Notes under the pieces: model-generated
What the model saw: only the letters and a program-made list of their open reading frames with translations
The model's database searches: none
What the model was told of the DNA's origin: nothing
Made by a program: the position numbers and the translations under genes
Source of the DNA: Methanogenium sp. S4BF
GTDB taxonomy: Archaea; Halobacteriota; Methanomicrobia; Methanomicrobiales; Methanomicrobiaceae
NCBI RefSeq assembly: GCF_029633965.1
Contig: NZ_CP091277.1
Coordinates: 1,299,940-1,363,939, forward strand
Direction: 5' to 3'
DNA: 64,000 nucleotides
In this document: piece by piece, positions 3,069 through 64,000 of the stretch
Layout of the letters: each line of letters begins with the position of its first letter
Position numbering within the stretch: the stretch's first letter is position 1

Positions 3069-3090
3069 GCATGAATGGAGGTGTGTTTAT

Positions 3091-3765
3091 ATGTTAGATC
3101 TACCTGTTGGCACCAAATATCAGAAACGGATTCCAAAAACCAAATTTTACCAGCATCTCTCTCTTTCACCAAAAGTGAAACAGCAGTTTGTAGACGAGAT
3201 TGATACAATTTTCTGGCAGAACAAACTTTCTCCGGATACTCTTGGCATCGCTGCGGGAAAGGAGGTGCAGGAGATTGAGGTCTTTGAGATTAAATTGCGC
3301 CAGTTTGGAATCAGTAAAAATCTCCTTGAGATCATGGACCGGCAAATTCCCTATCACATTGTCTTTGTCCTGACGTTTGATGGAATGGCACAGATAGTCA
3401 TCGGGTATAAGGAGAAGAGCAAAAAGAAGGATGATACCTACAAAGTTGAGAAGTATGTCTATTCTGAATGGTGTTCCCCTGATGAATGTGCACAGGAACT
3501 GAAAGGGCTGAATCTGGATGGCATATATGAAAATCTTTTGAGAGAGTATCTTCCTGAAGAGCAGCCGCAATTGAAGGATTTGAGAGAGACAATTGCTCTT
3601 CAAAAGGAGATTGAGAAACAGACCGCTCTGTGTGCAGCGCTGGAGAACAAGATGAAAAAAGAGAGACAGTTCAACAAGCAGGTCCACCTGAACCAGGAAT
3701 TGAGAGAGCAAAAAGCAAAGCTTGAAGGCATGCTTTCTGAACAGATATCCAATTGCAACGAATGA
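3091..3765 (+). CDS. DUF4391 family protein
   Basis: A 224-residue protein that I recognise as DUF4391. The family has no proven biochemical activity but is regularly found beside SNF2 helicases and type III restriction genes. An upstream ATG at 3058 overlaps the helicase, but a strong ribosome site GGAGGTG (3077-3083) lies 7 nt before the ATG at 3091, and the family-like sequence begins there (MLDLPVGT). The C-terminal third (about residues 160-224) is rich in Glu, Lys, Gln and Leu and is probably a coiled coil. By context it is likely a partner of the helicase. Confidence 0.8.
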   Translation: MLDLPVGTKYQKRIPKTKFYQHLSLSPKVKQQFVDEIDTIFWQNKLSPDTLGIAAGKEVQEIEVFEIKLRQFGISKNLLEIMDRQIPYHIVFVLTFDGMAQIVIGYKEKSKKKDDTYKVEKYVYSEWCSPDECAQELKGLNLDGIYENLLREYLPEEQPQLKDLRETIALQKEIEKQTALCAALENKMKKERQFNKQVHLNQELREQKAKLEGMLSEQISNCNE

Positions 3766-3805
3766 ATCCGAACAGAAAAAACAGTCATATAAGCATATGA
3801 GAAAT

Positions 3806-3851
3806 ACCAATGACGATATATATTATATCAAAGTAATTGTCTATCATTGGT
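3806..3851 (+). promoter_or_regulatory. TATA box inside an 8-bp inverted repeat, upstream of the XRE-ImmA gene
   Basis: ACCAATGA (3806-3813) and its exact reverse complement TCATTGGT (3844-3851) flank the AT-rich element GATATATATTATATC (3814-3828), the likely archaeal TATA box. The start codon is at 3892 with ribosome site GGGAGG at 3879-3884. The arrangement fits an operator at which the downstream XRE-type protein could repress its own promoter. Operator function is inferred from geometry only. Confidence 0.5.
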
Positions 3852-3891
3852 TCTTGTAATCATCATCTGAAGGAAATCGGGAGGAATAGCG

Positions 3892-5055
3892 ATGGAGACA
3901 ATCATTAACGGTAAAATGATTCAGTGGGCACGGGAGCGTGCACGCTTATCTCCTGCAGAACTCGCTGAAAAGTGTAAAACCGATCCAGAAACTGTTCGGA
4001 AATGGGAGTCCGGGGAACGTGCAATTACGGTCACAAAGGCAAAACAGCTTGCAAAAATAGCACTGATACCATATGGACTTCTCTTTGCTGATAATCCTCC
4101 GGAAGAGAAGATTCCCATTGCTGATTACCGGACACAAGGTTCTGCCGGTATCAGGAGACCCAGTCCCGAACTCCTTGAGACAATAGATGATGCTAAACTG
4201 AAGCAGGAGTGGTATCGCGAATATTTGATCGCTGAGGAATTTCCTCCTCTGGGTTTTATTGGAAAATATGATACTAATGCTGAACCTGAATTCATTGCAC
4301 AGGAGATCAAACGAGTTCTTGGGGTCGATGATACGGAGTATTATGCCTGTAAAGACTGGGAACAGGCATTTAGTTATCTTATAAATCATGCAGAAGACGA
4401 AGGAATTACGGTCCTTGTCAATAGTACGCTGAAAAACAATACCCATCGGCCGCTGGATGTTGAAGAATTCCGGGGTTTCGTTCTTTCTGACTCCTATGCA
4501 CCGTTGATTTTCATCAATGGGAAAGATGCAAAGGCTGCCCGGATGTTTACGCTCATGCATGAGATTGCTCATCTCTTCATTGGTGAGAGCGGTGTCTGTG
4601 ATGACACCATTGCGGGAAATGGTTCCATCCCACAGGAACAGTGGTGCAATCAGGTTGCTGCTGAATTTTTAACGCCAAAGGACCGGTTTCTGGAGTTATG
4701 GAAAGAAGGAGAAAGTGCTGACTCCAATCTGGATACGATCCGGCTGAGACTGAGGGTGAGCAGATTGGTTGCTATTTTCCGTGCATATCAACTGAACCTA
4801 ATTTCCTACGAAGAGAAGCAGGAATTCGTCTCCACAGAGATGACACACTTTGCAGCAATCAAAACGAAGCAGAAGGATACGAAAGGCGGACCGGATTATT
4901 ATGTCATCAAGAGATTTAAGACTGGGAGGAATCTTGCGATGGCGATCATTTCTGAAGTGCGGGCAAACCGGATGCTCTACCGGGATGCCTTCCATCTGCT
5001 TGGCGTGAAAAATATTGAAGCCCTGAATACATTTGCGGGCGCTTTGGACTATTAA
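3892..5055 (+). CDS. XRE-family HTH regulator with ImmA/IrrE metallopeptidase domain
   Basis: A 387-residue protein. Residues about 5-60 form an XRE helix-turn-helix (WARERARLSPAELAEK and the following residues). A zinc-peptidase motif HEIAH is at residues 223-227 and starts an ImmA/IrrE domain. In known ImmA-type systems the peptidase cuts a repressor after a stress or phage signal; here HTH and peptidase are fused in one chain. It is separated by 2 bp from the downstream DUF4411 gene, and this pairing (XRE-ImmA followed by a PIN-like DUF4411 protein) recurs in prokaryotes, so the two may form a regulator/toxin unit. It probably controls its own promoter through the inverted repeat upstream. 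Confidence 0.9.
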   Translation: METIINGKMIQWARERARLSPAELAEKCKTDPETVRKWESGERAITVTKAKQLAKIALIPYGLLFADNPPEEKIPIADYRTQGSAGIRRPSPELLETIDDAKLKQEWYREYLIAEEFPPLGFIGKYDTNAEPEFIAQEIKRVLGVDDTEYYACKDWEQAFSYLINHAEDEGITVLVNSTLKNNTHRPLDVEEFRGFVLSDSYAPLIFINGKDAKAARMFTLMHEIAHLFIGESGVCDDTIAGNGSIPQEQWCNQVAAEFLTPKDRFLELWKEGESADSNLDTIRLRLRVSRLVAIFRAYQLNLISYEEKQEFVSTEMTHFAAIKTKQKDTKGGPDYYVIKRFKTGRNLAMAIISEVRANRMLYRDAFHLLGVKNIEALNTFAGALDY

Positions 5056-5057
5056 CG

Positions 5058-5546
5058 ATGAAATATCTGCTGGATTCGAATGTATTTATTGAGGCGAAAA
5101 ACGGCTATTATTCATTTAATATTGCAGGGGGGTTTTGGGATTGGCTCGAACTCTTTATGGAAGAGCAGTCATTTCTGACCATCCGGGAAGTCAGGAAAGA
5201 ATTGACTGATTATAATGATGAATTGAAGGACTGGATAATACAATTTCAACCGAGTCAGTTTATAGAGGAAGATCTGGAAATTCAACAGAATATGAGAGAG
5301 ATTACCAATTACGTTCTCAATCACGAGACATTCTCCCCGGAGAATAAAAGTATGTTTCTTGCGAAAGCCGACCCATGGTTGATTGCCACCGCGATGGCAC
5401 GAGGGTATGTTGTTGTCACGCATGAAAACAAAGTGGGAAAAGGGGCAAAAAAGGTCAAAATTCCAAATATATGTGAGACGTTCGGTGTTGAATATATCAA
5501 TGTCTTTGAATTGATGAGGACAAAGAATGTAAATCTACGATTGTAA
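5058..5546 (+). CDS. DUF4411 family PIN-like protein
   Basis: A 162-residue protein starting 2 bp after the XRE-ImmA gene. The N-terminus MKYLLDSNVFIEA carries the first acidic residue of a PIN-like fold, and DPWLIATA (about residue 106) plus a VVTHEN segment supply the later acidic/polar positions. This matches the DUF4411 branch of the PIN superfamily, many of whose members are RNases and toxins. By context it is probably the effector partner of the XRE-ImmA protein. RNase activity is inferred from fold assignment, not shown. Confidence 0.85.
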   Translation: MKYLLDSNVFIEAKNGYYSFNIAGGFWDWLELFMEEQSFLTIREVRKELTDYNDELKDWIIQFQPSQFIEEDLEIQQNMREITNYVLNHETFSPENKSMFLAKADPWLIATAMARGYVVVTHENKVGKGAKKVKIPNICETFGVEYINVFELMRTKNVNLRL

Positions 5547-5641
5547 GGCTGATTCACATCTGCCAGATATCATTGTACACAATTATTATTCCAATACGTA
5601 ATCTGAATTTTAAATCTCAGTCAAACAACGGAGAATTATCT

Positions 5642-7573
5642 ATGAGCAAATCCGGGCCAGAATACCTGAAAATGGAAACCACCAACACCACAGAAGACCA
5701 TATCGAAAAAATTGCTTCACTATTCCCGAATGTCATCACCGAAATTGAGGATGATGAAGGCATTCTCCGCAAGGGAATTGACTTCGATCTCCTCCGGCAG
5801 GAGCTCTCAGGTGGCTATGTCGAAGGAAGAGAAGAACGCTACGACTTTACATGGGTTGGGAAGAGGAAGGCCATCGTCGAGGCGAACCGCCCCATCAAAA
5901 AGACCCTCCGGCCCTGCATGGAAGAGAGCAAAAACTGGGAGGACACCCAGAATATCTTCATCGAAGGGGACAATCTCGATGCCATGAAACTCCTCCAGGA
6001 GAGCTATCTCAACTCAGTCAAGATGATCTATATCGATCCCCCGTATAATACAGGAAACGACTTCATCTACAACGACCGGTTCGTGATGGACGCTGACGAA
6101 TATGATGAAGAGACCGGCGCAGTGGACGATGCAGGCAACCGGATGTTTAAAAACAATAAGGAACGGGGCCGGTATCACTCAGACTGGTGCTCGATGCTCT
6201 ATCCCCGACTGAAGCTTGCACATACCCTGCTTCGTGATGATGGAGTTATATTTCTTTCAATTGATGAACATGAGATGCCTAATCTCCGCCATATGATGAA
6301 CGAGATCTTCGGTGAGGATAATTATATTGAATCAATAATATGGAAGAAACGAAGTACGCCTCCCAATGATAAAATCATAGGTGCAGCTCATGAATATATC
6401 CTAATCTATTCTAAGGACATCCAGAAACTTTCTTTGAATCTCAGAGAAAGGACCAATGAACAGATTGAGAGATATCAAAATCCTGATAATCATCCAAAAG
6501 GACCTTGGGTACCCGGAGATTTAATGGCTAATGTGAAGGGTGGAAGATATGTAAAATCTCTCAATTTTCCTATAATTAATCCCAATACAGGAGAAGAACA
6601 TTATCCTTCTTCAAACGGAAATTGGCGATTTAATAAAGACAAAATTGACGAACTCATTAAAAATAATGAAATTTACTTTGGCAAAGATAACAAGGGCCGT
6701 CCTAAATTGAAACGTTTCTTATCCGATGTTAAAAAAGGAATAACATATACAACCATTTGGGATTTTGTTCCATTTAACACAGTAGGCTCAAAGGAAATGG
6801 CTGAATTGTTAGGAAACTTAACTGTTTTCAATAATCCTAAGCCATCAGGGTTAATTGTAGAATTACTTAAGCTTGGCTCATTAAATAATTCACTAATCCT
6901 CGACTTCTTCTCCGGTTCTTGCACAACCGCCCATGCCGTCATGCAGCTGAACGCGGAGGACGGCGGCAGCGGCACCCGCAAATTCATCATGGTGCAGCTG
7001 CCTGAGCCCTGCTGCGATGAAGGGAGTGAGGCATTGAAGGCGGGATTCCATACCATCGCAGAGATAGGCAAGGAGAGAATCCGTCGTGCCGGTGAAAAGA
7101 TCAAAGCCGAATTGGAGGAGGCGAACCGGCAAAAAACCCTTGACGGAGAGCAAATGAAGATTCCCGATATCGGATTCCGGGTCTTCAAAATCGATGACAC
7201 CAATATGAAGGATGTCTATTACGCAGCAGAAGACTATACTCAGGAGACCATAGAAGGACTTGTTGATAATGTCAGGGGAGACAGAACGGACACAGACCTC
7301 CTCTATCAGGTCATGATCAACTGGGGCCTTCCTTTAGACCTCAGACACGAGATGGAAACCATCGACGGGTATACCGTGCACATCGTTGATGGCAATGCAC
7401 TTGTCGCCTGTTTTGAAGCAAACATCTCTGAAGATGTGATGCGAACAATTGCGGAGAAAAAACCCCTGCGGGCCGTCTTCCGGGATGGTTCATTCAGGAA
7501 CAGCCCTGGCAAACTCAATATTGAAGGCATATTCAAGACCATTGCACCGGACACGAAACTGAGAGTGATCTGA
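5642..7573 (+). CDS. mod: Type III restriction-modification system methyltransferase subunit Mod
   Basis: A 643-residue N6-adenine DNA methyltransferase of the beta class. The catalytic motif IV DPPYNTGNDF is at about residue 132 and the AdoMet-binding motif I DFFSGSCTTAHAV follows at about 420; this order defines the beta group used by type III Mod. An in-frame ATG at 5573 exists, but GGAG precedes the ATG at 5642 and the conserved protein begins there. The central part (about nt 6340-6890), where the target-recognition domain lies, is much more AT-rich than both flanks, which suggests domain exchange. Mod supplies sequence recognition for the Res subunit encoded downstream. Its last base is shared with the RhuM start codon. 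Confidence 0.95.
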   Translation: MSKSGPEYLKMETTNTTEDHIEKIASLFPNVITEIEDDEGILRKGIDFDLLRQELSGGYVEGREERYDFTWVGKRKAIVEANRPIKKTLRPCMEESKNWEDTQNIFIEGDNLDAMKLLQESYLNSVKMIYIDPPYNTGNDFIYNDRFVMDADEYDEETGAVDDAGNRMFKNNKERGRYHSDWCSMLYPRLKLAHTLLRDDGVIFLSIDEHEMPNLRHMMNEIFGEDNYIESIIWKKRSTPPNDKIIGAAHEYILIYSKDIQKLSLNLRERTNEQIERYQNPDNHPKGPWVPGDLMANVKGGRYVKSLNFPIINPNTGEEHYPSSNGNWRFNKDKIDELIKNNEIYFGKDNKGRPKLKRFLSDVKKGITYTTIWDFVPFNTVGSKEMAELLGNLTVFNNPKPSGLIVELLKLGSLNNSLILDFFSGSCTTAHAVMQLNAEDGGSGTRKFIMVQLPEPCCDEGSEALKAGFHTIAEIGKERIRRAGEKIKAELEEANRQKTLDGEQMKIPDIGFRVFKIDDTNMKDVYYAAEDYTQETIEGLVDNVRGDRTDTDLLYQVMINWGLPLDLRHEMETIDGYTVHIVDGNALVACFEANISEDVMRTIAEKKPLRAVFRDGSFRNSPGKLNIEGIFKTIAPDTKLRVI

Positions 7574-8694
7574 TGGCAGAGATGGCAGATGAAAATGAGT
7601 CCACCAATAAACGTCTGGAATGGCAGGAACCCCCAAAGGGACATATCCTGATATACCAGTCAAAAGATGAGACTTTCAGGCTTGATGTCCGCTTTGAAGA
7701 TGAATCAGTATGGCTGACCCAGCAGCAGATGGCCGAACTTTTCCAGACCACCAAGCAAAATATCAGTCTCCATATAAAAAACATCTATTCTGAGAGCGAA
7801 CTCCTCCCACAGGCAACTGTCAAGGAATACTTGACAGTTCAAACGGAAGGAGCACGTGAAGTCAAACGAACGATTGACTACTACAACCTTGATATGATCA
7901 TCTCTGTCGGTTATCGGGTGAGAAGCAGTATTGCCACCCGGTTTCGTATCTGGGCGACACAGCACCTGACGGAATTCATTAAAAAGGGGTTCATTCTCGA
8001 TGACGTTCGCCTGAAAGAACCGGAAAGCAGTAGGTACTTTGAGGAACTCTTAGCACGGATCCGCGATATCCGTTCATCTGAAAAGATTTTCTGGCGCAAA
8101 GTTCTGGACATATACGCGACCAGTATTGATTATGACCCAAACGCTGAAACAACACAGCAGTTTTTTAGACAGGTACAAAACAAGATGCACTGGGCGGCGC
8201 ATGGTCACACCGCAGCAGAATTGATCTATGAACGTGCAGATGCAAACAAGCCTGAGATGGGGATTACCAATTATCCGGGGAATACCCTGCTCAGACGTGA
8301 TATAGAAGTTGCAAAGAATTATCTCAGGGAGGATGAATTAGCAGTTCTCAATCGAATAGTGACCGCATATCTGGAAATCGCAGAATTGCAGGCGCTCAAC
8401 CGGATGCCAATGACCATGCAGGACTGGATTGAACGCCTGCACCAGTTTTTAACAATGACCGGACGTGAACTGCTGACAAACGCCGGAAGCATCAGTCACG
8501 AAACTGCACTACAAAAAGCACACGCTGAGTATGAAACCTACTGCAGGAATAAATTGCAGGAGCCGACAGACGTTGAAAGGCATTTTATAGAGATGGAAGA
8601 TGGAATAAAGCACATCAAGGGAAGAACTGAAGAAGAGCCATCTCCGGACACGAAAGCACACGCGAAAAAGGAATGCGGAGAAAATAATCATTAA
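7573..8694 (+). CDS. rhuM: RhuM family protein within the type III R-M locus
   Basis: A 373-residue homologue of the RhuM 'virulence' family, whose N-terminal part resembles Bro/KilA-N-type DNA-binding proteins. Diagnostic stretches are VWLTQQQMAELFQTTKQNIS, an HTH-like segment at about residue 40, and LDMIISVGYRVRSS. The start codon overlaps the Mod stop (TGATG), so the two are translationally coupled. RhuM genes are often seen between mod and res, but a role in restriction is not established; a regulatory or toxin-like role is inferred only from position. Confidence 0.88.
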   Translation: MAEMADENESTNKRLEWQEPPKGHILIYQSKDETFRLDVRFEDESVWLTQQQMAELFQTTKQNISLHIKNIYSESELLPQATVKEYLTVQTEGAREVKRTIDYYNLDMIISVGYRVRSSIATRFRIWATQHLTEFIKKGFILDDVRLKEPESSRYFEELLARIRDIRSSEKIFWRKVLDIYATSIDYDPNAETTQQFFRQVQNKMHWAAHGHTAAELIYERADANKPEMGITNYPGNTLLRRDIEVAKNYLREDELAVLNRIVTAYLEIAELQALNRMPMTMQDWIERLHQFLTMTGRELLTNAGSISHETALQKAHAEYETYCRNKLQEPTDVERHFIEMEDGIKHIKGRTEEEPSPDTKAHAKKECGENNH

Positions 8695-8774
8695 GGGCGG
8701 TATCTGAAGATGGAACCGATAACGTGTATTCAAAACAGCACCGCTGAATTTCTCACATTCACCGGAGGCATGGA

Positions 8775-11700
8775 ATGAAACTGCAATTCAAACACCAAGC
8801 ATTCCAGGCTGAAGCTGCACAGGCGGTCTGTGACGTCTTTGCCGGACAGCCACGGACAACACCCACCTATCTTATTGATACCGGACTTATCGAAAAGACC
8901 TCCCGGCAGATACGATTCGGTGACGGCGAATTGGTCGATGAGGATTCCATTGACAGCACCGGATACAGGAACAGCAGAATAAAAATTGCTGACACTCAGA
9001 TTCTTCAAAATCTGCAGAAAATCCAGAGAGATTTACAGATAGAGCCTTCAAAAGACCTTGAAGGGACATATAACCTGACCATCGAGATGGAGACCGGTGT
9101 CGGGAAGACCTACACCTACATCAAAACGATGTATGAAATGAACAAACGATTCGGGTTCACAAAGTTCATCATTGTTGTTCCATCCATTGCCATCCGTGAA
9201 GGAGTGTACAAGTCATTTGAACTGACGGAAGATCACTTCGCAGAAGACTATGGCAAGAAGATCCGCTATTTCATCTACAACTCAAAGCAGCTCCATAAAC
9301 TCGAGCAGTTCGCAAACGACAGCAGCATCCATGTAATGATCATCAATTCCCAGGCGTTCAATGCCAGAGGAAAGGATGCGAGACGCATTTACATGCAGCT
9401 CGATTCTTTCAGAAGCCGCAAACCCATCGATGTCATTGCACAGACAAACCCGGTAGTAATCATTGATGAACCGCAGTCGGTTGAAGGTGCGGCAACAAAA
9501 GAACGGCTGAAAGAATTTAATCCCCTCATGACCCTGCGGTATTCGGCCACCCATAAGAAGAACGAGACCTATAACATGGTCTACCGGCTGGATGCCCTTG
9601 AGGCATACAATAAACGACTGGTCAAAAAGATTGCGGTAAAAGGAATTTCTGTTACCGGTTCAACAGGGACTGAAGGGTATCTCTATCTGGAAGGTCTGAA
9701 TTTTTCAAAATCTGCTCCCACCGCCAGTCTTGAATTTGAGTGCAAAGGGAAGAACAGCCTGAGAAAAGTCAGCCGGAATGTAACGGAGGGATACAACCTG
9801 TATGAGCATTCAGGTGAATTAAACCAATATCAGGGATATGTAGTTTCAGAGATAAACGGCCTCACCAATTCGGTATCATTCACAAACGGAGTCACCATCA
9901 CTGCCGGTGAGATGCAGGGTTTAACAGATGAAGAACAGATCCGGCGCATTCAAATCCGCGAAACAATCAAGTCTCACCTTGAACGCGAACGTGCACTCTT
10001 CAAAAAAGGAATAAAGGTTCTGTCACTCTTCTTCATTGATGAAGTAGCCAAATACCGGCAGTACGATGATTCCGGGGAGCAGATACCCGGAGAATATGCC
10101 CAGATATTTGAAGAGGAATATCGTTCAGAGATTGAAAATCTCACATTGTCCTTTGGTGAAGATGACTATCTCTGTTACCTTAAGCAGATCAAAGCAGAAG
10201 AGACGCACCAGGGATACTTCTCCATTGACAAAAAGGGCAAATATGTTGATAGCAGCGCCAAAGGAAAGGAGAATGTCTCAGATGACGTTGACGCATATGA
10301 CCTTATCATGAAGAAGAAAGAGCAGCTCCTTGATCACAAGGAACCTGTTCGCTTCATATTTTCCCATTCTGCCCTTCGTGAAGGATGGGACAATCCAAAT
10401 GTATTCCAGATCTGCACCCTGAAGACAAGTAGTTCAGAAGTCCGCAAACGCCAGGAAGTTGGCCGTGGACTTAGGCTGTGCGTGAACAATCTCGGCGAAA
10501 GAATGGATACAAATGTGCTTGGTGGTGATGTCCACAATGTCAATGTTCTCACGGTTATCGCAAACGAAAGTTATGACAGCTTTGCCAAAGCCCTGCAGAG
10601 TGAGATGGCAGATGCCATTGCAGACAGACCACGCATTGTTGATGCCCGGTTATTTGAAGGCAGAGTTATTTCCAACATAAACGGTGCAGAACGGATCATT
10701 GATCCAGATCTTGCACGGAAAATTAACAATAGCTTGATCCGAAATTGTTATGTTGATGATGATTGTGCATTGACAGTAAAATACCATGAAGACGCTAAAA
10801 ACGGGAATATCAGTTTGCCGGAAGAGATTAATGATTACTCAGGATCAATAATAGAAATACTTGGCAACATTGGTAACCCTGATGCATTTAGGCCGGATGA
10901 TGCACGCAGCAGGAATGTTGACCTGAAAATAGTCGACGAGAAGCTTGAGATGAAGGAGTTTAAATCCCTCTGGGAAAGGATAAACTCAAAATCAGCATAT
11001 ATTGTCGATTTTGATTCAAATGAACTGGTAGAGAAATCCATAGCGGCACTGGATGAAAAACTCAGAGTCAAAAAAATATTTTACCGGATTGAGTCCGGTG
11101 CCCAGGTGGATACAATACAGAGCAAGGAATCGGTTGCATACGGTGAGTCATTCATCCAAAAAGAACAGGAAACCACAGTTGCTGCTGCAAAGGCAAACTC
11201 CTCTGTGAAGTATGATTTAATTGGCGAGATTGCCAAATCCACAAAACTTACCCGCAAGGATGTGGCCGCAATCCTGCAGGGCATAAAAACGACCACATTT
11301 GATCAATTTAAAGGTAATCCGGAAGAGTTCATCATACAGGCATCAAAGCTTATTGATGAACAGAAAGCAACGGTAATTGTTGAACATATTGAGTATCATA
11401 TTCTTGAAGACCGCTATGATACCGGCATTTTTACCGAGCCTTCAATGAAACGGGGCACCATTGGAAAGAATGCAATACCTGCAGACAAGAGTCTCTATAA
11501 TTACATCATAACCGATTCCGGGACTGAACGGAAATTTGCAGAAAAACTTGACACAGATACCAATGTTGCTGTGTATGTCAAACTTCCCAACGGATTTTAT
11601 ATTAACACCCCGGTTGGAAAATACAACCCCGACTGGGCAATTGCATTTAAGGAAGGAACAGTCAAGCACATCTACTTTGTTGCCGAGACAAAGGGAGATT

Positions 11701-11840
11701 TATCCTCAATGCAACTGCGTAAAATAGAGTCGTTGAAGATTCAGTGCGCGAGGGAGCATTTCAGGAGCATTAGTTCGGATTCGGTGAAATATGAGGTTGT
11801 TACCGATTATCATGGTTTATTGAATGAAGTTATGACGTGA
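8775..11840 (+). CDS. res: Type III restriction endonuclease subunit Res
   Basis: A 1021-residue helicase-nuclease. Walker A is ETGVGKTYTY (about residue 105), the DEAD-box equivalent is IIDEPQ (about 230), followed by YSATHKKN (about 257) and REVGRGLR-type motif VI (QEVGRGLRLCV). At the C-terminus NPDWAI (about 950) and FVAETKG (about 969) form a PD-ExK nuclease. Length and layout match type III Res. The start is preceded by GGAGG at 8763-8767. With Mod it should translocate from unmethylated sites and cleave DNA. A gap of 80 bp separates it from rhuM. No obvious lesions were seen. Confidence 0.95.
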   Translation: MKLQFKHQAFQAEAAQAVCDVFAGQPRTTPTYLIDTGLIEKTSRQIRFGDGELVDEDSIDSTGYRNSRIKIADTQILQNLQKIQRDLQIEPSKDLEGTYNLTIEMETGVGKTYTYIKTMYEMNKRFGFTKFIIVVPSIAIREGVYKSFELTEDHFAEDYGKKIRYFIYNSKQLHKLEQFANDSSIHVMIINSQAFNARGKDARRIYMQLDSFRSRKPIDVIAQTNPVVIIDEPQSVEGAATKERLKEFNPLMTLRYSATHKKNETYNMVYRLDALEAYNKRLVKKIAVKGISVTGSTGTEGYLYLEGLNFSKSAPTASLEFECKGKNSLRKVSRNVTEGYNLYEHSGELNQYQGYVVSEINGLTNSVSFTNGVTITAGEMQGLTDEEQIRRIQIRETIKSHLERERALFKKGIKVLSLFFIDEVAKYRQYDDSGEQIPGEYAQIFEEEYRSEIENLTLSFGEDDYLCYLKQIKAEETHQGYFSIDKKGKYVDSSAKGKENVSDDVDAYDLIMKKKEQLLDHKEPVRFIFSHSALREGWDNPNVFQICTLKTSSSEVRKRQEVGRGLRLCVNNLGERMDTNVLGGDVHNVNVLTVIANESYDSFAKALQSEMADAIADRPRIVDARLFEGRVISNINGAERIIDPDLARKINNSLIRNCYVDDDCALTVKYHEDAKNGNISLPEEINDYSGSIIEILGNIGNPDAFRPDDARSRNVDLKIVDEKLEMKEFKSLWERINSKSAYIVDFDSNELVEKSIAALDEKLRVKKIFYRIESGAQVDTIQSKESVAYGESFIQKEQETTVAAAKANSSVKYDLIGEIAKSTKLTRKDVAAILQGIKTTTFDQFKGNPEEFIIQASKLIDEQKATVIVEHIEYHILEDRYDTGIFTEPSMKRGTIGKNAIPADKSLYNYIITDSGTERKFAEKLDTDTNVAVYVKLPNGFYINTPVGKYNPDWAIAFKEGTVKHIYFVAETKGDLSSMQLRKIESLKIQCAREHFRSISSDSVKYEVVTDYHGLLNEVMT

Positions 11841-12420
11841 TTACTGAAATGAGCGCCGAAAATATTCTTGTGCGAATGTGATTGAAATACAAAGCATTGA
11901 CGGAAGTCAACTTACCCTTCCCAAAAAAGGCATGAATGTGGGCAGTATACCCCGTCCACATTCGCTAAATTCTCCTGAATTCCACCACATGCTCCAGATG
12001 TTCCACTGCATCCATATACCCAGTTTCTCCCCCGGACAGCGCAGCACCTTCGCGGGGCCACTCACGACACCCGCTAAGAGATTGCATCACCAAAGAAATG
12101 CCCCGCATTGTCACAGGGACGCGGGGACACGGGGCGGGGGGATGGAGGATTATATCTCCTGCCTCCCGCTGTCTCCCCGAGCCCGGAAATGGGGTCCTGT
12201 CCCGCATCCCATGGGGCCGTGATGGCACCCATATTTCAGGCCCATTTTTCCTCTTAAACATGCTAAAAATTGCAAATTTGGGCATATCCGGGCTTATCTT
12301 GGCATATTTACGTGGCATCGGGACCACCCTAAAAATAGGGATGTTATGAGCGTTATACGACAAAAAGTGCCTGGAAGTTCAGTCCCGCGCAGTGCCCGGC
12401 GACCAGTGACCAGTCCCTGT
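11841..12420. other. Intergenic, no supported gene
   Basis: About 580 bp after res. Short open frames exist on both strands but none looks conserved or has a clear ribosome site. The middle holds a G-run/C-run imperfect palindrome around 12118-12182, with a smaller GGAG/CTCC hairpin near 12144-12159, followed by an AT-rich stretch (12240-12345). It may be remnant DNA at the edge of the defence island. Confidence 0.5.
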
Positions 12421-13035
12421 TTACCCAGTCCTCCCCATTCCCTCCACATGGTTCAGATTATACCTCGCGTCCGAATACGCCGGGTCAATCTTCACAGCAC
12501 AGGTGAAACATTCCTTCGCCTCACTCGTGCGTCCGGCCGCAGCCATCGCCTCGCCTTTTGCGTTCCAGGCCATCGCATCATCCGGGCTCCTCGCAAGGGC
12601 AGTGTCATACCACTTGTGCCCCTTCGGGACTTCGGTAGCACTGCTCATCATCCGGGACACGACAGAGGCACCGTCCTTTTCATTCTCCGTGAGAGAAATC
12701 ACCAGATGGTCCAGCACCCGGTTGTTCTCATGAACCGACTGACCTGACCGGCGCAGGGCGTCCTCCCTCTTCGTCAGGGAAGTGATGAGACGTTCAAGCT
12801 CCTGTTTCACACCGGGAGAACGGACCGCTGAGGCAGCAATGCGCACAGAAAGTGCGTTTTCGCCTGCAGGGACGACTGTTATCCATTGCGTCCCGGCCCG
12901 TGAATCTGTCAGAAAACCCGTAGATTTCGTACATTCCGGCATGTCCTGACCGATGGCATCCGACTCCACCCGAAGTGTTGCATATTCATCCGCACCGCCC
13001 TCTTCGAAATATTCACTGACTGTTATCGTCACCAT
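12421..13035 (-). CDS. TPR-containing protein of unknown function
   Basis: A 204-residue protein without a signal peptide. The middle (about residues 75-115) is rich in Glu, Leu and Arg and probably coiled. Residues about 145-195 contain two tetratricopeptide-like units (ARSPDDAMAWNAKGEAMAAA, then AKECFTCAVKIDPAYSDARY). TPR units mediate protein contacts. The N-terminal part is unrecognised. It stands alone between the type III system and hicBA. A distant similarity in its TPR units to the secreted TPR protein at the right end of the window is family-level only. Confidence 0.7.
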   Translation of the reverse strand: MVTITVSEYFEEGGADEYATLRVESDAIGQDMPECTKSTGFLTDSRAGTQWITVVPAGENALSVRIAASAVRSPGVKQELERLITSLTKREDALRRSGQSVHENNRVLDHLVISLTENEKDGASVVSRMMSSATEVPKGHKWYDTALARSPDDAMAWNAKGEAMAAAGRTSEAKECFTCAVKIDPAYSDARYNLNHVEGMGRTG

Positions 13036-13393: not shown

Positions 13394-13626
13394 TCATATT
13401 GCCTCAAAAAATTCTTCCTTTGAGACTTCACAGTCCCGGATAATTTTTGCAAGAAGACCTTTTGAGATATCTTCCCCTTTATGAAATGGAACAACAGTAG
13501 TTCGTCCATCCGGGTGACGGAAAAAATATGACTCCCATTTTGTCGCGATTGGACAAACCCAGGTTTTACAAGAATTTTACATACTTTTTCGGGTGGTTGT
13601 GGGAGAATTCGCTGCATATCACCCAT
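13394..13626 (-). pseudogene. hicA: HicA-type mRNA interferase toxin, frameshifted
   Basis: The minus strand reads MQRILPQPPEKVCKILV, then GFVQSRQNGSHIF, which is the HicA fold with its catalytic His (GSH). After a run of T's (coding strand, about nt 13522-13528) the frame breaks. One frame over, the family sequence continues as FRHPDGRTTVVPFHKGEDIS and then LLAKIIRDCEVSKEEFFEAI to a stop at 13394. One missing base would restore a protein of about 75 residues. The catalytic His lies before the break, but the shifted tail destroys the second half of the fold. It may be a true mutation, slippage at the T run, or an assembly error. It follows hicB closely. Confidence 0.75.
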
Positions 13627-59365: not shown

Positions 59366-60228
59366 TATACGGCGACCATACGACAGGCGTCATCGTCCAG
59401 GGGGCGACCGGCAACCAGGGCGCATTCCACATCAATCTCATGAACCAGTATGCACAGGAGACCGGCGGACGCGGTGTGGTGGCAGGCGTCACCCCCGGCA
59501 AAGGCGGCCAGAAGGTGCACGGCGTTCCGGTCTATGACAGTGTACGGGAGGCGATGGCGGAGCATGATGCAACGACATCCGTTCTCTTTGTGCCCGGATT
59601 TGCCGCAGGCGACTCCATCATGGAGGCGGCAAGCGCGGGCCTTGAACTGGTCGTCGCCATCACCGAGGGCATCCCGGTGCACGACACCATGCGGGCCCTT
59701 GCCTTTGCACGGATGGAGGGCTGCACGGTCATCGGACCGAACTGCCCCGGCATCCTCTCCCCCGGCGAACTGAAGCTGGGCATCATGCCGCCGCAGCTTG
59801 CCATGCCCGGACACGTGGGCATCATCTCCCGCAGCGGAACCCTCACCTATGAGGTCATCAACGAGCTCACACGGGCGGGCATCGGGCAGTCCACCGTGGT
59901 CGGCATCGGCGGCGACCCCGTGATCGGCCAGACCTTCACCGAGGTGCTGGAGCGCTTTGAGGCCGACCCGCAGACAAAGGCCGTCGTTTTGATCGGCGAA
60001 GTGGGCGGAAACCTCGAGGAGGAGGGGGCGACCTCAACCAGCCTCCCGCTTGTCACCTATATCGCCGGCATCTCCGCACCGCCGGAGAAGCGGATGGGCC
60101 ATGCAGGCGCCATCATCGAGGGCGGCGAGGGCGATGCGGTCTCAAAGATTGCACGGCTCAGGCAGCTGGGCTTCCCGGTTGCAGGAAAGCCATCCGACAT
60201 TCCGGGGCTGGTGCGGGAGCTGCTATGA
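59362..60228 (+). CDS. sucD: Succinyl-CoA synthetase alpha subunit
   Basis: A 288-residue alpha subunit. [15 protein letters not shown] is the CoA-binding Rossmann motif, [19 protein letters not shown] is conserved, and the phospho-His lies in [12 protein letters not shown] (about 247). It overlaps both sucC and the next gene by 4 bp. Confidence 0.96.
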
Positions 60229-61019
60229 CCCAGACGATGCTGAAGGCGGCCGCAGCACTTGCAGAAGAGGTCGGCGCAAAGGCAATCGTCTCCTTTATCG
60301 AGCCGGTGGAGTTCACCTGTGACATCCCTGTTATCTGGGTGCAGGACCTGCAGCTCGATGTCCTCCGTGACCTCACGATGCACGACATCCTTGAGATCTC
60401 CGAGCGCCACCTGCATGATGCCGCCGTACAGATCTACATCTCCCAGAGGTATGAATCGGGCAAGGTCGTCGGCGTCTTTCCGTATGCAATCTTAGTCTAT
60501 GACATCAACCAGGGCAAGGAGTTCATCAGCGTCAAGGAGTTCGACGATCTGGTGCCGCGGGGCGTCATGACCGCCGTCCTCCAGCTGGCCCTCGAGATCG
60601 CGGTCGAAGGGCGGGAGGGCCGCTCCATCGGCACCGCGTTTATCATCGGCAACACCGAGGAGATTCACAGCCACTCCCACTCGGCGATCATCAACCCCTA
60701 CCAGGGGCACCGGAAAGAGGTGCGTGACATCACCAACCGGGACAACTGGGAGAGCGTAAAGGAGTTTGCCCAGTTAGACGGGGTCTTTGTGGTCGACACC
60801 ACGGGCTCCATCCAGTCAGCCGGCCGGTATATCGATGTCAAAGGGGACGATCTGAGCCTCCCCCACGGCATGGGCGGCAGACACCGGGCCACCGCATCCC
60901 TCACCCGCATCATCCCCGCAGTAGGCGTCACCATCTCCGAGAGCGGCGGCATGGTCCGGGTGTTCCGGAACGGCGAGTGCTGGCTCACCGTCCGGTCTGA
61001 TGTCCGGATTAAAAACTGA
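60225..61019 (+). CDS. dacZ: Archaeal diadenylate cyclase (c-di-AMP synthase)
   Basis: A 264-residue DacZ. An N-terminal domain of about 110 residues is followed by a DisA_N-type cyclase core with DGVFVVDTTGSIQSAGRYI (about 185) and GMGGRHRATASLTR (about 212-225), which supplies the RHR nucleotide-binding motif. The usual DGA motif reads DGV here. It makes c-di-AMP from two ATP. The start overlaps sucD by 4 bp, so it is in the same operon as the Kor and Suc enzymes. A T run (61022-61028) follows the stop. Confidence 0.93.
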   Translation: MTQTMLKAAAALAEEVGAKAIVSFIEPVEFTCDIPVIWVQDLQLDVLRDLTMHDILEISERHLHDAAVQIYISQRYESGKVVGVFPYAILVYDINQGKEFISVKEFDDLVPRGVMTAVLQLALEIAVEGREGRSIGTAFIIGNTEEIHSHSHSAIINPYQGHRKEVRDITNRDNWESVKEFAQLDGVFVVDTTGSIQSAGRYIDVKGDDLSLPHGMGGRHRATASLTRIIPAVGVTISESGGMVRVFRNGECWLTVRSDVRIKN

Positions 61020-61022
61020 TCT

Positions 61023-61355
61023 TTTTTTGGTATCGATAACCCTCCTTTTTGGTCACCTGACCTGACGGACCACCACACAACCAGCGACGCCGGAGGGATA
61101 TGTACTGCCAGAGTCTCAAGATTGAGGCCCCATGCTCGTAAATTCAAGTGGTTCATCGGAACCACGGGGATGAGAAGAACCTGCACGGGTTTTCGAATGC
61201 CGGCGGGCACGATCCATACGGCGGCGGACACTCCCATCTGAGGGACGCAGTCTGCGAGTCGGATACAGACGGTAGCTGGGGAAGGCAAATCCTGCGGTTG
61301 TCCGCCCGATGAAGCGCTTATTCTCGTGAACTTGCATGTCAGACACAGCCAACAC
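61023..61355 (-). pseudogene. Decayed copy A of a Cys-rich small protein
   Basis: The minus strand at 61042-61140 encodes YEHGASILRLWQYISL and then RRRWLCGGPSGQVTKK, identical at 18 of 32 positions to the intact protein at 62142-62465. Upstream on the same strand about 60 bp of unrelated sequence (about 61141-61199) is inserted, then homology returns as RRRMDRARR where the intact copy has CCCKECARR: Cys codons read as Arg codons. The insert shifts the frame, so no intact protein is possible. The copy is oriented divergently to the peptide gene at 61909. Confidence 0.6.
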
Positions 61356-61908
61356 CTGGTGAATCTATCATATCGCCGGGCGAAGTTTCTAACGTTTCGT
61401 CGTCAGTATCACGAATTTTACCATGAAACGGCGGTATAAGATGATCCCATCAGCTGCGAATGCAACCCGCTGGTGCTGGGACCGATGCCTGATTGTGTTG
61501 TGTCCGATTATTTGAAGCAATTTCACACGAACTCCTGCAGATCAGGCATTGTCTCCGTGGCCTGCTCATGCTGCCAAATCTGGATGACAGAATTTATGTT
61601 CCCATTAGAAGATTTCATATCAGAACAGCCGAAAAATGTGTAATGCAACAGAAACGTTGGTGTTTACAGACGACACATTTCTGTCCAAAATATCTCTGTT
61701 TTTCTTTTAATGCATGGACATTTGGCGTATAAATCTCCAAATTGCACAGCTTTGAACATTTGGAGTTAGTTTGGTGGCAAGGAGGTTTCTGTTGATAATC
61801 GCTGTCTCTCAAATTAGCACTGACTGGACAGGCTCCCGGATATCCATACTAAAAACGAAAACCGAAACTGATGTAATCTCATACCATAATTTTGTAAATG
61901 GTAGTAAA
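61356..61908. other. Intergenic between copy A and peptide 1
   Basis: About 550 bp. By analogy with the second cassette it should hold the promoters of both genes. Short open frames (61493-61732 plus, 61615-61812 minus) show no family features. No clear TATA box was picked out. Confidence 0.35.
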
Positions 61909-62091
61909 ATGACTCAGCCACAATGGAAAAAACCGATTTTGCACATAATGGTCAGGCACACACAAGAGGAGCGAATTTTGTGGTCATGCAAAGGGGCGGA
62001 CAGGGGCCTGGCCTCCCATACAGTATATGGAAATTGCTGGTATATTCAGAACGAATGTGGAGGAGTGTGTGATATAATCTCAGTGAGCTAA
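61909..62091 (+). CDS. Small Cys-rich peptide 1, precursor-like
   Basis: A 60-residue peptide, starting MTQPQWKKPILHIMVRHTQE. The C-terminal third contains NCWYIQNECGGVCDIISVS. Cys residues are at 27, 43, 50 and 54. The paralogue at 62652 has the same spacing. The N-terminal part (W-x-x-P, I-x-x-R, IL-x-x-CK-G) looks like a conserved leader and the rest like a core. No signal peptide. Two small Cys-rich peptides with a conserved leader suggest modified-peptide precursors, but no modification enzyme is visible nearby. The reading frame upstream is open to 61771, but similarity between the peptides supports the ATG at 61909. Confidence 0.6.
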   Translation: MTQPQWKKPILHIMVRHTQEERILWSCKGADRGLASHTVYGNCWYIQNECGGVCDIISVS

Positions 62092-62141
62092 ATATACGTG
62101 GCTATACGTGGCACCGCACGTAACCAATGTGATATGCAACA

Positions 62142-62465
62142 TCAACGCGATGGGCGCACGTTGCACACATCACCTGTCAGCAAACAGTATGCGTCCAAAT
62201 CCAGTATCGCCCGGACGACTCCTTTTTTGATCACCTGACCATCCGGACCGTCCCACAACCACCGGCACCAGCGGGATAGGTATCGCCAGAACCTCTCAAA
62301 AAAGGCCCCCTGCTCATAAAGCCGGCGGGCACATTCCTTACAGCAGCACCCCTCACAGGTAAGGAAAGGGCAGAAAGCAAGTCCATGGTGCAGTATTGTC
62401 AGGCATACTGAACAACTGCACTGTTTTGTTCTTAATGACAAAACATCAAAGAACTCATTTCTCAA
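62142..62465 (-). CDS. Cys-rich small protein B of the duplicated cassette
   Basis: A 107-residue protein. The middle contains a dense Cys cluster (FCPFLTCEGCCCKECARR) followed by an aromatic, basic helix (LYEQGAFFERFWRYLSRWCR and WLWDGPDGQVIKK). An N-terminal CSCSVC motif adds more Cys. This may bind metal or Fe-S, or the helix may lie on a membrane; no named family was recognised. Its partner gene on the plus strand (62652) is divergent. A decayed copy lies at 61023-61355. The C-terminal 20 residues beyond the homology block are less certain. Confidence 0.55.
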   Translation of the reverse strand: MRNEFFDVLSLRTKQCSCSVCLTILHHGLAFCPFLTCEGCCCKECARRLYEQGAFFERFWRYLSRWCRWLWDGPDGQVIKKGVVRAILDLDAYCLLTGDVCNVRPSR

Positions 62466-62651
62466 TTGTATCTGTCACCTCATCACGTGAATCCTCTTTT
62501 GTCTATGCAGAACAAAAACATCGTGAGGTCATTGCAGACTTCTGAATGAACCGGGGACGGAATTTTGGCAAATTATCCCTGAACGTGCGGCACAGGCCAA
62601 AATAATTAAACGCATTCACTAAGATATTCACATAAAGAGATGTATTAAGCA

Positions 62652-62852
62652 ATGACCAACAGCTCACGGAACCACGACAAAAAACACTGGAAGACTCCGC
62701 AAATGACGATTATCATCAGAAATAACGATGAAAAAGTCCTTTCTGTATGCAAGGATGGACATCAGGCAGGAAACCCTGAATTAACGTACATGACATGCTG
62801 GTACAATAACCCCCTATGTGGGGTAATGTGCTCTTTGGTAAGTCCGAGCTAA
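62652..62852 (+). CDS. Small Cys-rich peptide 2, precursor-like
   Basis: A 66-residue peptide: MTNSSRNHDKKHWKTPQMTI, then RNNDEKVLSVCKDG and TCWYNNPLCGVMCSLVSPS. Cys residues are at 33, 49, 56 and 60, which gives the same intervals (16, 7 and 4) as peptide 1. Shared positions include W-K-x-P, I-x-x-R, E, L-x-x-CK-x-G, CWY, CG-x-x-C and S-x-S at the end. An AT-rich element AATAATTAAA (62601-62610) lies about 42 nt upstream and may be the promoter. Function is unknown; a RiPP precursor or a small secreted/regulatory peptide are the leading ideas. Confidence 0.62.
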   Translation: MTNSSRNHDKKHWKTPQMTIIIRNNDEKVLSVCKDGHQAGNPELTYMTCWYNNPLCGVMCSLVSPS

Positions 62853-63121
62853 TCTATCAGGCATCCGCGATAACCGATGTAATTTCGGAAAATACCGTAA
62901 TTACCGCACATCCGTTGAATCACCATCACCGGCGGAAAAAAACCTGCATCCGCACGTTCCCTTCCCGCATACCGGGAGTGGCGGGGAACCAGTGTCGACG
63001 GATCCCACAAATTTTTACAAACCAATTCCCACACCCGGACGCCCGACAGCGTAAAGCCTGCTGAAAGGAGCGACCCGTGTTTTATCAAAGATCTCTGCGA
63101 ACATCGCCCAAAAAGGTATAG
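62853..63121. other. Intergenic after peptide 2
   Basis: About 270 bp. A minus-strand frame at 62849-63256 is open, but it has no family features and overlaps the plus-strand small frame at 63122. I looked for a third copy of the Cys-rich protein here and found no convincing alignment. Confidence 0.35.
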
Positions 63122-63274
63122 ATGGAGCATAGAACGCTGGATACCCCGGTGGCGTATCTGTGTGAGATTGCCCATGCCCGGACGTATGATCCCGGGCTCA
63201 TGCAGGAGAGAGAACGGGCGTGGGAGATTGGGGACGGGAAGGAGCGGGATGAACAATTCGCAGCCGGTATTTGA
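63122..63274 (+). CDS. Small hypothetical protein
   Basis: A 50-codon frame (ATG 63122, TGA 63272-63274) reading MEHRTLDTPVAYLCEIAHAR and then TYDPGLMQERERAWEIGDGK. It is charged and coding-like, with AAAGGT about 7-12 nt before the start. No family was recognised. Confidence 0.35.
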   Translation: MEHRTLDTPVAYLCEIAHARTYDPGLMQERERAWEIGDGKERDEQFAAGI

Positions 63275-63550: not shown

Positions 63551-64000
63551 ATGAAACAAGCAGCCATACACCGATTCATCGGAGGATTTCTCATTATTCT
63601 CATGCTCTGCAGCGGAATAGGGAATGCGTCAGATGATATTGAGACAGATCGTTTTATTTCACAACTTCAATCGGCACTGAATGCACATGAGAATGGGAAA
63701 ACTGAGCAGGCCATCTTTATGATAGATAATGCTTCAGAAACCTATCTGCATACGAACTGGAGCTATTACATCTGCGGATACCTGATCTCAGAGATGGGGG
63801 ACGATGAACGGGCTCTCGTGCACTTAAATAAAGCACTGGAAACCGACAGCACCTATGCTCAGGCATGGTATTACAAAGGGAAGGCATTGTCTGGTCTGGG
63901 AAGAGACCGGGAAGCTGCGGAGTGTTTTGCCCGTGCAGAAGAACTTGATGAACGGTATACAGTTCCCTGGACAGAAAAATGGCCGGTCAGCATCATTTTC
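63551..64000 (+). CDS. Secreted TPR-repeat protein, 3' end outside window
   Basis: The frame runs from ATG 63551 to the window end (150 codons, no stop). A signal peptide is visible (FIGGFLIILMLCSGIGNAS). The mature part has TPR units: SALNAHENGKTEQAIFMIDN, then ALVHLNKALETDSTYAQAWY and GKALSGLGRDREAAECFARA. It probably mediates protein contacts outside the cell. Its full length is unknown. Confidence 0.8.
   Translation, partial: MKQAAIHRFIGGFLIILMLCSGIGNASDDIETDRFISQLQSALNAHENGKTEQAIFMIDNASETYLHTNWSYYICGYLISEMGDDERALVHLNKALETDSTYAQAWYYKGKALSGLGRDREAAECFARAEELDERYTVPWTEKWPVSIIF

What the first reader, a model, noticed from the sequence alone, without database searches (positions are those of the whole stretch)
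61023..62852. Tandemly duplicated divergent cassette of a Cys-rich protein and a small four-Cys peptide
Two units have the same layout: a Cys-rich protein gene on the minus strand and, divergently, a 60-66 residue peptide on the plus strand (61023-62091 and 62142-62852). The two peptides differ at most positions but keep four Cys at identical intervals (16, 7, 4), the CWY and CG-x-x-C motifs, a W-K-x-P leader start, an L-x-x-CK-x-G stretch and an S-x-S end. Strong conservation of the Cys frame amid general divergence points to selection on a folded, disulfide-bonded, metal-binding or enzymatically modified peptide. I recognise no named family, and none of the surrounding genes is a known modification enzyme or exporter.
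Basis: partly seen in the sequence, partly recalled or inferred. Interest (0 to 1): 0.75.

Follow-up and report, generated by a model that had tools for sequence, protein, structure and literature searches.

The report
Precursors of kinase-linked radical-SAM peptides
The two small four-cysteine peptides in this methanogen are raw material for chemically modified secreted peptides, made by an enzyme cluster that starts at the window's right edge, was acquired from outside the genus, and occurs in many anaerobic bacteria with an almost fixed serine or threonine at the end of each peptide where a kinase probably adds phosphate.

Summary
The peptides are real: 61909-62091(+) and 62652-62852(+), with Cys spacing 16/7/4. 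Two more copies lie 12 kb past the window end. Between the pairs sits a complete RiPP cluster: ABC exporter, PqqD-type RRE, S24/S26-like peptidase fused to GNAT, three radical-SAM proteins (one fused to an HprK-like kinase) and NTP_transf_5. The island is inserted between dacZ and the SAM-synthetase gene, which are neighbours in relatives.

The same cassette occurs in 79 loci from about a dozen bacterial phyla and methanogens. 60 loci carry the precursor family: W-x-x-P-x-L...E-x-V-L-x-x-C-K, variable Cys core, final Ser/Thr in 90 of 94. No Pfam or NCBIfam model covers it.

The minus-strand "Cys-rich protein genes" are decayed reverse-transcriptase fragments; such relics lie convergently downstream of precursors elsewhere too.

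Best mechanism: the RRE presents the leader, radical-SAM enzymes modify the Cys core, and the kinase phosphorylates the terminal Ser, as in paeninodin. The cassette is a sister of the named SynChlorMet cassette: a new variant of a known kind.

The parts
61909..62091 (+). precursor peptide 1 (60 aa): leader W6-K-K-P9 to C27-K28, core Cys C43, C50, C54, final Ser
   Evidence: own-genome profile hit E 3e-29
62652..62852 (+). precursor peptide 2 (66 aa): same frame, final Ser
   Evidence: own-genome profile hit E 6e-32
   Evidence: tblastn to RT fragments E 8e-15; RVT_1 hit of the relative L068 E 8e-5
   Evidence: relatives downstream of precursors in L057, L068, L069
63017..63262 (+). relic of the radical-SAM 3 gene, 3' end
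   Evidence: tblastn E 5e-17; DNA 72% identical, E 2e-19, to L008:12429-12604
63551..64000 (+). TPR protein with N-terminal hydrophobic segment, running past the window end; directly followed by the ABC exporter gene outside the window
   Evidence: a TPR/ABC pair (61% / 83% identical) also lies beside the SynChlorMet cassette of same-genus genome G004 (L223)

Best explanation
The two peptides are precursors of ribosomally made, post-translationally modified peptides (RiPPs) of an unnamed, widespread class. SHOWN: they belong to a family with a conserved leader (W-x-x-P-x-L-x-V-L-x-R...E-x-V-L-x-x-C-K), a fast-changing Cys-containing core and a nearly fixed final Ser/Thr. They lie with a cassette of PqqD-type RRE, S24/S26-like peptidase (with or without GNAT), radical-SAM protein 1, radical-SAM protein 2 fused to an HPr-kinase fold, radical-SAM protein 3, and often an ABC exporter and an NTP_transf_5 protein. 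In this genome the cassette is one inserted island between dacZ and the SAM-synthetase gene. INFERRED: (1) PqqD binds the WxxPxL leader, as lasso RREs bind YxxPxL leaders; (2) the radical-SAM enzymes modify the core, most likely forming Cys thioether or other carbon-linked crosslinks; (3) the HprK-like domain phosphorylates the C-terminal Ser, as PadeK/ThcoK do in paeninodin-type lasso peptides, and the NTP_transf_5 protein may decorate that phosphate, as PsmN does; (4) the S24/S26-like peptidase removes the leader and the ABC protein exports the product, probably an antagonistic or signalling peptide.
For: Gene content between the two precursor pairs. Precursors in 60 of 79 loci found with the radical-SAM 2/kinase fusion alone, with an HMM trained only on methanogen sequences; decoys and control loci empty at E < 0.07. 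Cassette conservation: of 59 loci of at least 9 kb, radical-SAM3 56, radical-SAM1 54, PqqD 53, S24/S26 51, precursor 47. Final residue Ser 82 and Thr 8 of 94, against 9.1% Ser in the rest of the core. Kinase fold: pLDDT 94, Foldseek to HPrK/P and PEPCK with probability 1.0. His and Lys invariant, Asp-Asp near-invariant, the motif required in lasso kinases (PMC9266682). In G190 the P-loop is destroyed and two of three precursors have lost the terminal Ser. Leaders under purifying selection, cores faster. Empty site in relatives.
Against: No transcript, peptide or enzyme assay. The linkage chemistry cannot be read from sequence. Two bacterial loci (L126, L148) have degraded kinase motifs yet keep the terminal Ser. 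In the sister SynChlorMet loci, which carry the related ScmC, the terminal Ser is not conserved. Peptide 4 of this genome lacks a canonical start codon in frame, so part of this copy may be decaying. Loci were collected through the kinase fusion, so kinase-free cassettes were not sampled.
Confidence: 0.78

Rival explanations
1. RiPP cluster as above, but the kinase-like domain does not phosphorylate the C-terminal Ser: it acts on another residue or partner, or uses ATP to drive another step, and the terminal Ser is kept for another reason such as peptidase, export or radical-SAM recognition.
For: Two loci with degraded kinase motifs keep the Ser; ScmC-bearing SynChlorMet loci lack a conserved terminal Ser.
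Against: 90 of 94 end in Ser/Thr, mostly 6-8 residues after the last Cys; catalytic His-Lys-Asp-Asp kept; direct precedent in paeninodin (PMC9266682); joint loss in G190.
Confidence: 0.3
2. The peptides are metal-binding products: the four Cys bind copper, zinc or an Fe-S cluster, with modification serving metal uptake or buffering (like methanobactin or bufferins).
For: Four regularly placed Cys; one of 26 members gives a marginal Pfam methanobactin hit, E 0.02.
Against: 25 of 26 give no such hit; no MNIO (DUF692) or MbnB/C-like gene in the cluster; 13 of 94 members have fewer than four Cys; core sequence and spacing vary strongly.
Confidence: 0.08
3. The product is a redox cofactor made from a peptide (like PQQ or mycofactocin) rather than a secreted peptide.
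For: PqqD and PqqE-like proteins.
Against: Several precursors per genome with strongly different cores; an exporter in many loci; a cofactor precursor would be nearly invariant in the modified part.
Confidence: 0.04
4. The window copies are pseudogenes: leftovers of a decayed cluster with no function today.
For: They lie among reverse-transcriptase and radical-SAM relics; only the island's distal part holds intact enzymes; peptide 4 lacks a start codon.
Against: Both window peptides are full length with ATG starts and the complete leader, Cys frame and terminal Ser, while neighbouring relics are riddled with stops; all cassette enzymes in this genome are intact.
Confidence: 0.1

Closest known systems
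SynChlorMet cassette (NCBIfam TIGR04248-TIGR04252: ScmA precursor, ScmC, ScmD PqqD-like, ScmE and ScmF radical SAM)
   Same: PqqD-like protein, radical-SAM/SPASM proteins and an HprK-related protein whose best NCBIfam hit is ScmC; aromatic-x-x-P leader; S26-like peptidase, ABC and NTP_transf_5 genes nearby; shared by methanogens and anaerobic bacteria
   Different: All enzymes score far below the cut-offs (ScmC 23.7 of 125; ScmF about 81 of 400; ScmD 22 of 100); precursors do not match ScmA, have W- not Y-type leaders, four spaced Cys and a terminal Ser; third radical-SAM protein; kinase fused to a radical-SAM protein
Paeninodin / pseudomycoidin-type lasso peptides (PadeK, ThcoK, PsmK, PsmN)
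   Same: Kinase with His-Lys-Asp-Asp and HprK relationship, C-terminal Ser on the precursor, nucleotidyltransferase, PqqD-like B1 (PMC9266682); weak NF033524 hit (E 0.09) for 2 of 26 precursors
   Different: No lasso B2 protease or C cyclase in the cluster; radical-SAM enzymes instead; Cys-rich core
Sactipeptides / ranthipeptides (AlbA, SkfB, StsB, PapB)
   Same: Cys-containing core with radical-SAM maturases; weak hits to the AlbA, StsB and PapB models; SkfB among the closest solved relatives of radical-SAM 3
   Different: No precursor match to a named family; separate PqqD RRE; kinase and nucleotidyltransferase; thioether not shown
PQQ and mycofactocin systems
   Same: PqqD-type RRE with PqqE-like radical-SAM proteins
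   Different: Several variable Cys precursors, exporter and kinase; no cofactor-type precursor

Membership tests
RiPP (general) | Genetically encoded precursor with conserved leader and variable core | tested here: met
RiPP (general) | Co-localised RRE and modifying enzymes | tested here: met
RiPP (general) | Mature modified peptide | not testable with these tools
   needs expression and mass spectrometry
SynChlorMet | ScmC, ScmD, ScmE/F models above curated cut-off | tested here: not met
   all far below cut-off
SynChlorMet | ScmA precursor (TIGR04252) | tested here: not met
   none of 26 precursors matches
Lasso peptide (paeninodin type) | B2 transglutaminase-like protease and C asparagine-synthetase-like cyclase | tested here: not met
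   no such gene among the long frames of L008 identified by Pfam/NCBIfam
Lasso-type C-terminal Ser kinase (works like) | HprK fold with His-Lys-Asp-Asp, and terminal Ser on the substrate | tested here: met
   motif from PMC9266682
Lasso-type C-terminal Ser kinase (works like) | Phosphorylation of the terminal Ser | not testable with these tools
   needs an enzyme assay
Sactipeptide / ranthipeptide | Radical-SAM protein with CxxxCxxC and extra C-terminal Cys (SPASM-type) | tested here: met
   all three proteins
Sactipeptide / ranthipeptide | Cys to alpha-, beta- or gamma-carbon thioether | not testable with these tools
   needs MS/MS or NMR
Sactipeptide / ranthipeptide | Maturase above cut-off of a named sacti- or ranthipeptide model (AlbA, StsB, PapB) | tested here: not met
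Diversity-generating retroelement | Reverse transcriptase with template/variable repeats differing at template adenines | tested here: not met
   no adenine-biased repeat around 131 precursors; all RT copies near precursors broken

The most novel reading that the evidence does not exclude
The convergent reverse transcriptase that repeatedly sits just downstream of these precursors was (or in unsampled genomes is) part of the system, copying or diversifying precursor genes; these would then be RiPP precursors diversified or spread by a dedicated retroelement.
Probability: 0.08. Interest if true: 0.85.

Novelty: new variant of a known kind. Interest (0 to 1): 0.62.

Why it matters
It links an unannotated precursor family to a conserved enzyme set shared by methanogens and about a dozen bacterial phyla, mostly uncultured anaerobes, and gives a directly testable prediction: a Cys-modified peptide with a phosphorylated (perhaps further decorated) C-terminal Ser. 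Radical-SAM chemistry combined with a lasso-type kinase, fused in one protein, would be a new combination in RiPP biosynthesis. Named bacterial strains carry it (Desulfofustis glycolicus DSM 9705, Desulfosediminicola flagellatus), so products could be sought at once. The leader motif also gives a search handle for small genes that annotation misses.

Tried and rejected
1. Homology of the minus-strand Cys-rich frames: no relation between them; replaced by the reverse-transcriptase relic reading.
2. The first genome-contig scan with the two peptides found nothing; the four-row alignment was too variable for the pattern search; the enzyme-based scan worked.
3. Diversity-generating retroelement: searched for adenine-biased repeats around 131 precursors; the repeats found were mainly paralogous precursors with conserved leaders. 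No intact RT near precursors, none of this lineage in viral contigs, none close in plasmids.
4. dN/dS between the two window copies: synonymous sites saturated, so closer pairs were used.
5. Own-genome matches at E above 0.1 (L006, L007) and relatives' hits at E 0.04-1 from the two-row profile were treated as noise; the four-row profile did not return the two own-genome matches.
6. SynChlorMet membership: failed the cut-offs and the precursor model.
7. PDB sequence search for the kinase domain gave nothing useful; a fold search was needed.
8. Literature: the only held paper with radical SAM, HPr kinase and RiPP together mentions the kinase in lasso clusters; no held paper names SynChlorMet. 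The library is open-access only, so this does not prove absence.

Full report
OBSERVATION. The two plus-strand peptides exist as described: 61909-62091 (60 aa) and 62652-62852 (66 aa), Cys intervals 16/7/4 in both, 20 identical columns. Their alignment score is 94 against 22.8 +/- 4.5 for shuffled sequence. A profile of the pair finds two more members in the same genome, about 12 kb further right on the minus strand (these also match the four-row profile built from them). Peptide 3 is MGSKKETDIVKQTSWECPVLLVHQRDHAQEAILAGCKGDNTVVSPDVGHNNCNFNTGLECIASCRDVTTS. Peptide 4 has an intact body from WQTPTLAVL to STISS but no canonical start codon in its frame, with an ATG-TAA one frame off.

SURROUNDINGS. 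L008 is G000:C1:1360900-1380000; window coordinate = L008 coordinate + 60960. It carries in order: a TPR protein (starts in the window at about 63551), ABC exporter (L008 ~3069-4976), PqqD-type protein (5135-5437), an S24/S26-like peptidase domain fused to a GNAT domain (5340-6446), radical-SAM protein 1 (6447-7610), an NTP_transf_5 protein on the minus strand (7841-9112), a radical-SAM protein fused to a 300-residue C-terminal domain (9444-11447), radical-SAM protein 3 (11444-12637), then peptides 4 and 3 (minus, 12843-13010 and 13409-13621). CxxxCxxC is intact in all three radical-SAM proteins and further Cys follow, as expected of SPASM-type domains. The next gene is the archaeal SAM synthetase. 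In same-genus genomes the DacZ gene (left of the peptides) and the SAM-synthetase gene (right of the cluster) are direct neighbours, 109-315 bp apart in three of them, and 171 bp apart in a same-family genome. None of the six same-genus genomes searched has the peptides or the kinase domain. The stretch from 61020 to the SAM-synthetase gene is therefore one inserted island of about 13.8 kb; its precursor-bearing ends have lower G+C than the flank on the SAM-synthetase side (0.44-0.47 against 0.60).

WHAT THE MINUS-STRAND 'CYS-RICH GENES' ARE. The two units share a 76%-identical DNA stretch on the minus strand. Relatives of it lie beside precursors in other genomes, and in the better preserved ones it reads as the C-terminal part of a reverse transcriptase (RVT_1; L068 at E 8e-5). 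In the window it is broken into pieces (61045-61427 and 62220-62357, minus). Around 131 precursors, relics within 1 kb were found 12 times downstream on the opposite strand and never on the same strand (some loci overlap, so the independent count is about 10). The two upstream cases are both in the window, where the units are in tandem. In a sample of 295 genomes of the phylum this RT lineage was seen only in two genomes, both of which have the precursors. No intact copy was found. At 63017-63262 (+) lies a relic of the 3' end of the radical-SAM 3 gene. The window thus shows precursor genes among the debris of earlier rearrangements.

RELATIVES. In 232 genomes of the class, precursors occur in 13 (two of these hits are weak, with stop codons inside), nearly all in another family of the order (Methanoregulaceae by the named records L091 and L099), with up to seven copies per genome. 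A scan of GTDB species genomes with the radical-SAM/kinase fusion returned 79 loci: Omnitrophota, Aminicenantes, Acidobacteria, Chloroflexi, Chlorobiaceae, several 'Deltaproteobacteria', Planctomycetota, WOR-1/WOR-3, KSB1, Poribacteria, methanogens and others. An HMM trained only on the methanogen peptides finds 105 hits in 60 of these loci; the best reversed-decoy E is 0.45 and the best control-locus E 0.08. In the 59 loci of at least 9 kb: radical-SAM3 56, radical-SAM1 54, PqqD 53, S24/S26 51, precursor 47, ABC 26, NTP_transf_5 22, GNAT 13. A tree of the kinase domain places methanogens in three separate places among bacteria, with this genome beside Methanolinea (99/94): repeated interdomain transfer is the simplest reading, with the caveat that many records are metagenome bins.

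PRECURSOR ANATOMY. Across 94 unique sequences: leader W-x-x-P-x-L..., 72 with four Cys, last Cys pair usually CxxC or CxxxC, last Cys 6-8 residues from the end in most. The final residue is Ser in 82 and Thr in 8, although Ser makes up only 9.1% of the rest of the core. In closer pairs the leader is under purifying selection (dN/dS about 0.03-0.26) and the core changes faster (about 0.3-0.8); the window pair itself is saturated at synonymous sites.

MECHANISM. The 300-residue domain fused to radical-SAM 2 was modelled on its Methanolinea relative (pLDDT 94), and Foldseek matches HPr kinase/phosphorylase and the related PEP carboxykinases with probability 1.0. It keeps an invariant His and P-loop Lys and a near-invariant Asp-Asp, the His-Lys-Asp-Asp set reported essential in the lasso-peptide kinases that phosphorylate the C-terminal Ser of paeninodin (PMC9266682). 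In pseudomycoidin a nucleotidyltransferase-like protein is needed for adding hexose to that phosphate (same source); an NTP_transf_5 protein is present here too. In methanogen G190 the kinase P-loop has become GLLKADKNI and two of three precursors end in Ala or Asp instead of Ser. Two bacterial loci with degraded kinase motifs keep Ser, so this is suggestive only. The PqqD protein as leader reader, the radical-SAM proteins as Cys-core modifiers, the S24/S26-like peptidase as leader-remover and the ABC protein as exporter follow from established RiPP logic and are inferred here. The linkage type is not readable from sequence.

COMPARISON. The nearest named system is the NCBIfam SynChlorMet cassette: the kinase domain's best hit is ScmC, and the PqqD and radical-SAM proteins hit ScmD/E/F, all far below cut-off. 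True ScmC loci in methanogens and related archaea carry Y-x-x-P-leader, Gly/Cys-rich small frames next to ScmC, one of which matches ScmA at 64.7 bits, but without a conserved terminal Ser. The present class is a sister: same logic, different precursor, extra radical-SAM protein, fused kinase. No Pfam or NCBIfam model recognises the precursor. Hence 'new variant of a known kind'.

Noticed in passing
L222:7161-7382(-), L223:6046-6240(+), L224:5613-5825 and 6026-6223(+), L227:5497-5721(+), L228:6937-7233(-), L229:6927-7283(-), L230:3227-3676(+): Small frames with a Y-x-x-P leader and Gly/Cys-rich repeats near ScmC genes. They look like SynChlorMet precursors, but those scanned score below the ScmA cut-off or have no hit; only L221:7501-7731(-) passes. 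The ScmA model may be too narrow.
   Followed up: partly
L057, L063, L067, L068, L069, L072, L102, L117, L148; window 61045-61427 and 62220-62357: Decayed reverse transcriptases of one lineage, convergent and roughly 70-800 bp downstream of precursor genes, in methanogens, Chlorobiaceae and an Acidobacteria bin. Cause of the association unknown.
   Followed up: partly
L223 (same-genus genome G004): A different but related cassette (true SynChlorMet) with an ABC exporter 83% and a TPR protein 61% identical to those of the window's island: the exporter/TPR pair is shared between cassette types.
   Followed up: no
L008:12846-13060 (-): Peptide 4 has no ATG, GTG or TTG near its leader; an ATG one frame off is followed at once by TAA TAG after a plausible ribosome-binding site: frameshift decay, a non-standard start, or a sequencing error.
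   Followed up: no
L109:5704-5923, 8792-8984 and 10618-10861 (+): Three Omnitrophota precursors share 85-91% identical leader DNA but unrelated cores, like other RiPP systems with fixed leaders and variable cores.
   Followed up: no
window 60225-61019 and L196: The dacZ / SAM-synthetase gap differs in length between same-genus genomes; in G003 (L196) it is about 1.2 kb, with unexamined content.
   Followed up: no
L175 (G134:C120), 1498-1818 and about 2145-2396: A reverse-transcriptase relic and what reads like a radical-SAM 3 relic lie together without a recognised precursor, resembling the decay state of the window.
   Followed up: no
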